64,000 nucleotides of DNA, from the NCBI GenBank assembly GCA_003255025.1, contig QANY01002872.1, positions 371,738-435,737 on the forward strand. The letters are read 5' to 3'. A model generated the notes under the pieces. It searched no databases, was not told the origin of the DNA, and saw nothing but the letters and a program-made list of their open reading frames with translations. Made by a program: the position numbers and the translations under genes. Of this stretch, positions 56,229-56,746 are shown piece after piece (the stretch's first letter is position 1; each line of letters starts with the position of its first letter). This stretch comes from Datisca glomerata (taxonomy: Eukaryota > Streptophyta > Magnoliopsida > Cucurbitales > Datiscaceae).

Positions 56229-56241
56229 TAATCTTTTGCAG
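56203..56241 (+). promoter_or_regulatory. possible 3' splice acceptor before the AlkB-like domain
   Basis: TTCCTCACTTCCTTACTTATAATCTTTTGCAG-type sequence (pyrimidine-rich, then TTTTGCAG, AG at 56240-56241) just upstream of the open AlkB frame. Matches a plant acceptor; no donor was identified. Confidence 0.4.
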
Positions 56242-56746
56242 GAAATTATTTTCAAGATTCTTCCGTGGAAGAATTTGATGAATCTGGCCTACTAGAATAC
56301 AGAATGGTAGAACCTAGATTACTTAATCAAAATTCTTTTAGAATCAAGAAGCTTAATGGTAGGGTAGCCACTTTTTACTCAAAATTATCATTTATTAATT
56401 ATGATCATGATAGATTTGAAAATCTAATAAATGACTGGCTTAATGAATTGGATAAAACTTTGGAAGAAATTGGATTGAGACATGATTTCAATGAAGCCTT
56501 AATTCAGTGGTATGAAAAAGGTGGTAAAATGGGTTATCACAAAGATAATGAAATCTGTTATGATAATAGAAAAATTTTAATTGTGAATCTCTTGGGACAA
56601 ACAATTTTTAAAATTAAATTTTCAAACAAAACAATAATTTTTTTTGGATACTGTAAGGAACTTTCTTCGTCATGCCTGATCGATATCAAAGAAGACATAG
56701 ACATGCTGTAGAATTCTTAACCTGAAGACTTAACATCACTTCAAAA
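56232..56746 (+). pseudogene. AlkB-like 2OG/Fe(II) dioxygenase domain in the pararetrovirus
   Basis: Open from 56232 to 56711 without an ATG near its start. Residues (from GTG at 56265) include LNGRVATFYSK at 30-40, FNEALIQWYEKGGKMGYHKD at 75-94 and KILIVNLLGQTIFKI at 103-117. His92 and Asp94 (codons 56538-56546) are the first two iron ligands. The frame then slips: from 56657 another frame reads GTFFVMPDRYQ and RHRHAV, with the third ligand His near 56702, and beyond a TGA at 56723-56725 RLNIT holds the likely 2-oxoglutarate-binding Arg (56726-56728). This is the motif order of viral AlkB domains, which in plant RNA viruses remove methyl groups from RNA. One frameshift and one stop break it. 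Confidence 0.8.

What the first reader, a model, noticed from the sequence alone, without database searches (positions are those of the whole stretch)
56232..56746. AlkB-like dioxygenase domain inside an endogenous pararetrovirus
Seen: an open frame with the FNEALIQ-YEKGGKMGYHKD block, then in a shifted frame a VMPDRYQ...RHRHAV block and RLNIT, giving all four expected landmarks (His, Asp, His, Arg). Known: AlkB domains occur in plant RNA viruses (Alpha/Betaflexiviridae and others) and reverse RNA methylation; caulimovirids are not normally described with one. Inference: this lineage acquired an AlkB module, perhaps from an RNA virus or host, to protect its RNA pregenome from m6A/m1A marking. 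The match is closer in style to viral than to host AlkB.
Basis: partly seen in the sequence, partly recalled or inferred. Interest (0 to 1): 0.88.

Follow-up and report, generated by a model that had tools for sequence, protein, structure and literature searches.

The report
Plant pararetrovirus carrying an RNA-demethylase domain
An old plant virus that copies itself through RNA, now fossilised in many copies in this plant genome, came in a form that had lost its own copying enzymes but carried an AlkB enzyme of the kind that strips methyl marks from RNA, apparently relying on a sister form for copying.

Summary
In detail: window 56232-56722 encodes an AlkB (2OG-Fe(II) dioxygenase) domain, frameshifted in this copy. 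It is no stray insertion. The host genome (678 Mb, unnamed) gave 150 scored AlkB matches, the cap. In 53 of 53 distinct copies opened, reverse-transcriptase (RT) relic sequence lies just upstream, inside a caulimovirid-type unit (movement protein, coat protein, zinc knuckle, protease, primer site). Less decayed copies pass the Pfam cut-off and mostly keep the metal- and cofactor-binding residues. AlkB shows purifying selection at about the protease's level, stronger than the RT relic.

None of 56 AlkB loci keeps the RNase H catalytic block, and 55 of 56 lack the RT YIDD motif. A second set of copies has RT and RNase H but no AlkB in its unit (0 of 10). One copy of each kind is 96-97% identical over 2.3 kb (movement protein to start of coat protein), yet their 3' halves are deeply diverged. 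This resembles the published signature of two-component florendoviruses.

Best reading: an AlkB-bearing, RT-less companion component, replicated in trans, whose AlkB demethylated viral RNA. Trans-replication, activity and role are inferred; the donor is open. The papers searched show no AlkB-bearing caulimovirid.

The parts
51563..51638 (+). 5' copy of the terminal redundancy (leader just 3' of the primer site)
   Evidence: matches 58851-58916 with score 70; among 2000 other 1-kb pairs only this pair itself and a separate 35/39-kb repeat scored above 40
51964..52155 (+). start of the polyprotein (MSRLFRSNSSSSNR...)
   Evidence: the same start opens the movement-protein frame in L044 and L046
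52125..52132 (+). site where about 470 bases of the movement-protein gene are missing from this copy
   Evidence: blastn of L044 to the window jumps from L044 3450 to 3918 here; L044 and L046 hold MP PF01107
53361..53600 (+). DUF7746, N part of the coat-protein region
   Evidence: PF24925 E=4e-10
53877..54281 (+). caulimovirid coat-protein domain, decayed
   Evidence: PF22909 E=5.9e-4, below cut-off here; 1.5e-13 in L032
54303..54503 (+). CCHC zinc knuckle
   Evidence: PF00098 E=1.5e-4, over cut-off
54933..55301 (+). retroviral-type aspartic protease
   Evidence: PF00077 E=3.6e-4, over cut-off
55502..55963 (+). reverse-transcriptase relic; YIDD reads CINN and the TPFG segment is missing
   Evidence: phmmer to PDB 8r0s E=6.1e-9; no Pfam hit; comparison with other copies
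55988..56231 (+). RT-thumb remnant running into the AlkB frame; too short for an RNase H domain
   Evidence: thumb detected in this copy (L002, E=3.7e-11); no RNase H match by tblastn in this copy; a C-terminal RNase H end is detected at this position in many other copies
56232..56708 (+). AlkB / 2OG-Fe(II) dioxygenase, N part with the H.D motif
   Evidence: PF13532 E=1.8e-6; 55-70% identical to the other 149 scored genomic matches
56657..56722 (+). AlkB C block (MPDRYQ..H.HAV) in another frame; RLNITSK follows past a stop
   Evidence: read; matches the same block in many other copies
56734..57966 (+). C-terminal polyprotein region, many stops; no known domain
   Evidence: no Pfam match over cut-off; 80.8% nt identical to L032 over the stretch from AlkB to about 57882; the homologous region of L032 follows RNase H in RT-positive copies
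58517..58526 (+). TATA-like element of the intergenic region
   Evidence: read by eye
58821..58832 (+). primer-binding site TGGTATCAGAGC, the only exact one on the + strand of the window
   Evidence: that this is the tRNA-Met site of caulimovirids is recalled. The longer recalled form gave no match with up to 3 mismatches
58851..58916 (+). 3' copy of the terminal redundancy, giving a unit of about 7.28 kb that contains AlkB

Best explanation
The element is a decayed copy of a high-copy endogenous caulimovirid-derived component that encodes movement protein, coat protein, zinc knuckle, protease and an AlkB dioxygenase but has lost RNase H and, in almost all copies, a recognisable RT active site (shown). 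It was multiplied in trans by a sister component that keeps RT and RNase H and shares its 5' half and intergenic region (inferred from the sharing). AlkB was translated in frame within the polyprotein (open frames shown, translation inferred). As an Fe(II)/2-oxoglutarate demethylase it most likely removed m6A or m1A marks from the viral RNA, the template of reverse transcription, or from host mRNAs that control infection (inferred from the family).
For: AlkB: 150 genomic matches scored of 2976 candidates (capped, this copy included), all E<=1.8e-47. Full domain in L032: PF13532 E=2.5e-10, 41.3 bits against a cut-off of 31.2, profile 71-194/194; PF03171 8.8e-8. Key residues: H96 38/42, D98 39/42, H151 32/39, R159 29/35 (which residues matter is recalled). 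Neighbours: RT pieces in 30 of 30 and protease in 28 of 30 of L002-L031, both in 12 of 12 of L032-L043; RT/RNase H pieces in 56 of 56 at a lax E of 10. In L032 one open frame of 902 aa runs from within the protease to the C-terminal region with AlkB inside. Selection: pairwise median dN/dS AlkB 0.31, PR 0.33, CP 0.36, RT relic 0.50; AlkB below RT relic in 720 of 803 pairs, and in 341 of 389 among loci not chosen for long frames. Loss: RNase H TDAS block 0 of 56; YIDD aligned in 0 of 56, found by text search upstream of AlkB in 1, L059. RT-positive set: RVT_1 3.3e-19, RNase H PF17919 3.3e-21 in the L043/L062 copy; no AlkB in the RT-positive unit of L062-L070 and L082, 0 of 10. Sharing: C15 (RT+) against C237 (AlkB+) is 96.3% nt over 1739 and 97.3% over 562 bases, 89.0% over the next 1859, then about 70-72% in two patches and 88% in one of 52 bases. 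Intergenic segments of two RT+ copies are 87-96% identical to the ten best AlkB copies each (181-550 bases), against 68-70% in the downstream coding part for 14 of 15 copies. The C15 RT+ copy also has MP, coat, zinc-knuckle and protease matches.
Against: No activity, expression or virion data. AlkB is catalytically plausible only by motif; both structure predictions were poor and fold searches gave no AlkB match. Each of the four key residues is changed in a minority of copies (3 to 7). The RT relic and C-terminal region also have dN/dS of 0.41-0.52, so part of the signal may date from before the defects. AlkB is not lower than the coat protein (lower in 41 of 91 pairs), nor than PR in the 12 long-frame copies (19 of 56 pairs). 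Aligned over the whole intergenic stretch, L062 and the young AlkB copies are only 63-89% identical (L033, which lacks most of it, 13%; L012 46%); 94% is reached in one 200-base bin. Only one RT+ copy was read along its 5' half; 3 of 5 RT+ intergenic stretches gave no match to AlkB copies; the RT+ sample comes from the best matches to one query. Co-location of the two forms is enriched, but so is each form with itself.
Confidence: 0.7

Rival explanations
1. The AlkB elements are ordinary internally deleted fossils: a once complete RT-RNase H-AlkB virus lost RNase H and then RT, and the copies were spread by recombination, duplication or passive packaging. AlkB had no role after the defect arose; its constraint is inherited.
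For: RNase H loss is found in all 56 loci, and L059 shows YIDD text with no RNase H block, so the defects came in steps; dN/dS of the relic parts is also well below 1.
Against: Copies with the same RT lesions have long open frames and little-changed AlkB, MP and coat protein, though L032-L043 were picked for long frames; AlkB is more constrained than the RT relic in most of the same pairs. The 5' part of one pair and part of the intergenic region stay 87-97% identical to RT-positive copies while the 3' halves are diverged, which suggests continued co-replication or exchange.
Confidence: 0.25
2. AlkB acts on something other than the viral RNA: host mRNAs of defence or silencing factors, or alkylation damage in viral DNA.
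For: The closest host gene found (C906, L078; ALKBH2-like by recalled motifs) matches at E=0.005. The PHROG match of L022 is 'alkylated DNA repair', 1.5e-8. The orchid paper also raises cellular RNA as a target (PMC9289625 passages).
Against: Little direct evidence either way; the same paper says that AlkB proteins of plant RNA viruses demethylate RNA in vitro (passage).
Confidence: 0.25
3. A single host AlkB gene fragment fell into one viral fossil after integration.
For: The host has AlkB genes.
Against: 150 scored copies, same setting in every locus opened; host genes only about 21-30% identical in the meaningful alignments.
Confidence: 0.01
4. It is a Ty3/gypsy retrotransposon with AlkB like the Phalaenopsis family.
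For: Such elements exist (PMC9289625, section 12).
Against: 30K movement protein PF01107 2e-18, caulimovirid coat domain 1.5e-13, terminal redundancy next to a primer site; no integrase among the Pfam hits of the pieces scanned.
Confidence: 0.02

Closest known systems
Bipartite florendoviruses (endogenous Caulimoviridae of Vitis, Oryza, Sorghum; Geering et al. 2014, PMC4241990, passages read)
   Same: Two caulimovirid-type components, one without a working RT; intergenic region and movement-protein region nearly identical between them (paper: >90% and >87% nt; here up to 96% in intergenic segments, 96.3% nt over the stretch with MP in the one pair read).
   Different: The RT-less form here carries AlkB and keeps relics of RT and RNase H; the RT-positive form also has MP, coat, zinc-knuckle and protease matches, so complementation looks one-sided. 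Genus not tested.
AlkB-carrying Ty3/gypsy elements of Phalaenopsis orchids (PMC9289625; section 12 and passages read)
   Same: A reverse-transcribing plant element with a captured PF13532 domain; that one is reported as a functional m6A demethylase (title; a 2025 review says so too, passage).
   Different: There AlkB is in an additional ORF of an LTR retrotransposon; here it is in the polyprotein frame of a caulimovirid-derived element, behind an RNase H relic. That screen used RT as the marker, covered 121 angiosperm genomes, had 423 caulimovirid consensuses, and reports the domain only in two Phalaenopsis species.
AlkB domains of plant RNA viruses (Alpha-, Betaflexiviridae, Closteroviridae; named in a passage)
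   Same: Motif style H.DNE.CY ... MP.GFQ..H.H.V ... RI.ITFR (the flexivirus form is recalled, not compared).
   Different: Those are RNA viruses; here a DNA virus that replicates by reverse transcription. No sequence comparison was possible.

Membership tests
AlkB-type 2OG-Fe(II) dioxygenases | Profile match over cut-off (PF13532) | tested here: met
   28.8 bits in the window copy (below 31.2); 41.3 bits in L032, 37.5 in L022
AlkB-type 2OG-Fe(II) dioxygenases | HxD...H iron triad and 2OG-binding Arg (recalled definition) | tested here: met
   H 38/42, D 39/42, H 32/39, R 29/35
AlkB-type 2OG-Fe(II) dioxygenases | Double-stranded beta-helix fold | tested here: inconclusive
   models of mean pLDDT 60 and 37.5; fold searches with the first uninformative
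AlkB-type 2OG-Fe(II) dioxygenases | Demethylase activity | not testable with these tools
   needs a bench assay
Caulimoviridae (endogenous) | 30K movement protein | tested here: met
   PF01107 2e-18 and 6.3e-18 in L044 and L046; largely deleted in the window copy
Caulimoviridae (endogenous) | Coat protein with zinc knuckle, aspartic protease | tested here: met
   PF22909 1.5e-13, PF00098 3.2e-5 in L032; PF00077 in the window
Caulimoviridae (endogenous) | RT and RNase H | tested here: not met
   relics only in AlkB copies; present in the sister set. So the AlkB element is a derivative or component, not a complete caulimovirid
Caulimoviridae (endogenous) | Primer site with terminally redundant unit | tested here: met
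   58821 and 51563-51638/58851-58916; a 224-base repeat at 94.6% flanks the C432 copy, its 5' copy holding the primer site
Bipartite florendovirus-type genome | RT-less component with intergenic region and MP nearly identical to an RT-bearing one | tested here: met
   rests on one pair along the 5' half and on 2 of 5 RT+ intergenic stretches, in segments; whole-stretch alignments are lower
Bipartite florendovirus-type genome | The two components complement each other | tested here: inconclusive
   the AlkB form lacks RT and RNase H; the RT+ form lacks only AlkB among the domains seen
Bipartite florendovirus-type genome | Membership in the florendovirus clade by RT phylogeny | not tested
   no reference RT set was at hand
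Ty3/gypsy AlkB elements (orchid) | LTRs and integrase | tested here: inconclusive
   no integrase among Pfam hits of the pieces scanned; only a short terminal repeat beside the primer site in the window copy

The most novel reading that the evidence does not exclude
A two-component plant pararetrovirus in which one component carries RT and RNase H and the other has traded its RNase H for an AlkB RNA demethylase: a division of labour between copying the genome and editing methyl marks on its RNA, and the first AlkB known in a caulimovirid.
Probability: 0.55. Interest if true: 0.92.

Novelty: new variant of a known kind. Interest (0 to 1): 0.85.

Why it matters
AlkB is reported in plant RNA viruses and in one orchid retrotransposon family; the searches made here show none in a caulimovirid. 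Keeping an RNA demethylase in a pararetrovirus component that no longer encodes a working RT would mean that RNA methylation was a serious barrier to these viruses, and that a component can be kept for this service. It makes the idea that plants restrict reverse-transcribing viruses through RNA methylation directly testable, and it adds a new kind of case for divided genomes in pararetroviruses. Screens that use RT as the marker could miss such elements.

Tried and rejected
Host-gene insertion and Ty3/gypsy readings: rejected as above. Intron: the TTTTGCAGG before the AlkB frame looked like a splice acceptor, but in other copies that stretch aligns with the C-terminal end of RNase H (...LTREFLQ), so no intron is needed; in the window copy this is by eye. 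Structure: a single-sequence model of mean pLDDT 60 and a 21-row model of 37.5; Foldseek and VIA-align on the first gave no AlkB chain, which says nothing against the fold because the model is poor and lacks the C block. Sequence searches of the PDB with AlkB found no dioxygenase; NCBIfam gave nothing over cut-off. Viral collection: no relatives; two pattern scans gave 0 and 1 stretches, the one not AlkB when translated. Co-location: 12 AlkB/RT+ pairs within 10 kb against 0.66 expected if uniform, but AlkB-AlkB 7 and RT-RT 3 against 0.33 each, so general clustering explains part of it. Two same-strand near pairs (C689, C1280) looked like possible RT+AlkB+ units; C1280 (L082) is an RT-RNase H-C-terminal stretch followed by a separate AlkB element, C689 (L081) a jumble of truncated pieces. 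A partial RNase H match in L009 (31 residues) has E=0.089 and lies far upstream, in the protease region. The first permissive alignment of the leader was no better than its null; the stricter one was. L002-L031 are the best AlkB matches and L032-L043 were picked for long frames, so AlkB intactness is favoured by choice; one search separates the two groups but cannot remove that bias.

Full report
Observation. The window frame 56232-56708 hits PF13532 at 1.8e-6, 28.8 bits, below the 31.2-bit cut-off; a second block, MPDRYQRRHRHAV, follows in another frame at 56657-56722. Shuffles do not hit PF13532 (0 of 9) and each motif pattern occurs once in the six-frame window. Around it lie DUF7746, a coat-protein domain (below its cut-off here), a zinc knuckle and a protease, an RT relic matching the solved chain 8r0s, named Enzymatic polyprotein, at E=6.1e-9 (that this is a pararetroviral RT is recalled), and a primer site (58821) next to a 66-76-base terminal redundancy that closes a unit of about 7.28 kb. 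AlkB is inside that unit.

Recurrence. The host genome gave 150 scored AlkB matches of 2976 candidates, the cap, this copy included. A search with the PF13532 profile gave 129 matches (427 candidates, 150 scored); many lie at places listed (not counted), and a few are host genes. In L002-L031 RT pieces were found in 30 of 30 and protease in 28 of 30 (not in L021 and L027); in L032-L043 both in 12 of 12. Several loci are mixed, with pieces of more than one element (for example L012, L018, L027). With later fetches there are 56 AlkB loci, 53 distinct since L049, L050 and L051 repeat L007, L005 and L031; RT/RNase H pieces lie within 1.6 kb upstream on the same strand in 56 of 56, at a lax E of 10. 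Movement protein is present in two AlkB-type copies tested (C237 and C432; L044 and L046) and largely deleted in the window copy.

Intact domain and constraint. L032 carries the domain over cut-off (41.3 bits) inside a 902-aa open frame that starts within the protease. Key residues are mostly kept. Median pairwise dN/dS over 42 loci: AlkB 0.31 (861 pairs), PR 0.33 (817), CP 0.36 (91, from 14 loci), RT relic 0.50 (803), C-terminal region 0.46 and 0.48 (734 and 554). Decay after integration pushes the ratio towards 1, so AlkB was under purifying selection while its lineage replicated. In L002-L031 alone: AlkB 0.33, PR 0.39, RT relic 0.52; in L032-L043: AlkB 0.39, PR 0.32, RT relic 0.52. AlkB is lower than the RT relic in 720 of 803 pairs, than PR in 437 of 817, than CP in 41 of 91, than the first C-terminal part in 584 of 734. 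Pairs are not independent; with random disjoint pairings AlkB is below the RT relic in 90% of pairs on average, at least 70%.

What is broken. Compared with an RT-positive relative found beside one copy (L043/L062; RVT_1 3.3e-19, RNase H 3.3e-21), none of 56 AlkB loci has the RNase H TDAS block. Coverage of residues 227-309 is zero in 53, one or three residues in two, and 31 in one, which is a spurious match. Where anything of RNase H is detected it is its C-terminal end, just before AlkB. YIDD is aligned in none of 56; a text search finds YIDDVL in one, L059, whose RT is less decayed (though with stops) but has the same RNase H gap. So RNase H probably went first and RT later.

The sister set. 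A search with the intact RT gave 150 scored matches of 11985 candidates (the candidates may include unrelated RTs). In the nine opened downstream (L062-L070, eight of them picked from along the list) RNase H runs straight into the C-terminal region without AlkB; L082 adds a tenth. L069 and L070 have damaged RT or RNase H motifs, L064 and L068 one changed residue each. One RT-positive locus (C15) compared with one AlkB locus (C237) is 96.3% identical over 1739 bases with the movement protein and 97.3% over 562 bases to the start of the coat region, 89.0% over the next 1859 bases to the protease/RT border, then about 70-72% in two patches and 88% in one of 52 bases. Intergenic segments of two RT-positive loci (L062, L074) are 87-96% identical to the ten best-matching AlkB copies each and 74-80% to the window's; three others (L071-L073) gave no match, perhaps because those copies end earlier. 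Aligned over the whole stretch the intergenic figure for L062 is lower and varied, 63-89% for the young copies that hold it, with 94% in one 200-base bin of most of them; the window is 72%. Downstream coding sequence is 68-70% identical in 14 of 15. A common half and control region with unlike other halves is what Geering et al. used to argue for bipartite florendoviruses (PMC4241990, passages).

Mechanism. Shown: gene order, defects, sharing, constraint. Inferred: the AlkB component was packaged and reverse-transcribed by proteins of the sister component; AlkB was released from the polyprotein or acted within it; it demethylated the RNA pregenome or host mRNA. The orchid gypsy AlkB, reported as a functional m6A demethylase (title, passages), is the nearest precedent.

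Origin. Host AlkB genes of three kinds were read (labels recalled); the best match to viral AlkB is the C906 gene, E=0.005 with 29.5% identity over 44 columns. This speaks against a recent capture from those host genes. Plant ALKBH9/10-type genes were not compared, and flexivirus origin could not be tested.

Age. The C432 copy has a 224-base terminal repeat at 94.6% identity; with recalled plant rates of 0.7-1.5e-8 per site and year this is of the order of 2-4 million years, a rough figure. The window copy is about 80% identical to the two young copies compared.

Print. Full-text searches: AlkB with endogenous pararetrovirus, 2 papers; with Caulimoviridae, 8; with pararetrovirus, 11; 2OG with endogenous viral element and caulimovirid, 0; florendovirus with bipartite, 8. 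Titles and abstract starts show no AlkB-bearing caulimovirid. I read passages of PMC9289625 and its section 12, and term passages of PMC4241990, PMC10377300, PMC2714080 and PMC12786077; the other papers were seen in the listings only. In PMC4241990 and PMC10377300 the word AlkB does not occur. Most subscription papers and all bioRxiv preprints are missing from the library, so absence is not proof.

Noticed in passing
window 50631-50965 and 60473-60806: A 335-base repeat, 83% identical, same orientation, 9842 bases apart, outside the viral unit; the second copy is bounded by 46-base arms that are 72% complementary. Looks like a dispersed small element.
   Followed up: partly
window 9797-13952: About 1-kb units repeated head to tail at 82-84% identity.
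   Followed up: no
window 34334-35278 (-): Frame with RKPRGRPPGTQSKPKSP and a C-terminal part like plant AT-hook (AHL) proteins, a likely host gene (recalled motif).
   Followed up: no
RT relic of many AlkB copies (window 55840-55960): The RT relic seems to hold an internal duplication (KQYW ... KQYW) shared by many copies, with TPFG lost (by eye): a shared lesion useful for a family tree.
   Followed up: partly
L012 / L018 (C650:383309 and 384988): Two AlkB matches 1.7 kb apart on the same strand, too close for full units: tandem or deleted copies.
   Followed up: no
L043 / L062, L082, L081: Compound insertions in which AlkB and RT-positive pieces lie side by side, head to head or in a row.
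   Followed up: partly
window 1429-2199, 15393-15902, 36187-36789, 49201-49638: Several Ty1-copia-like frames; the window is rich in mobile elements (by eye).
   Followed up: no
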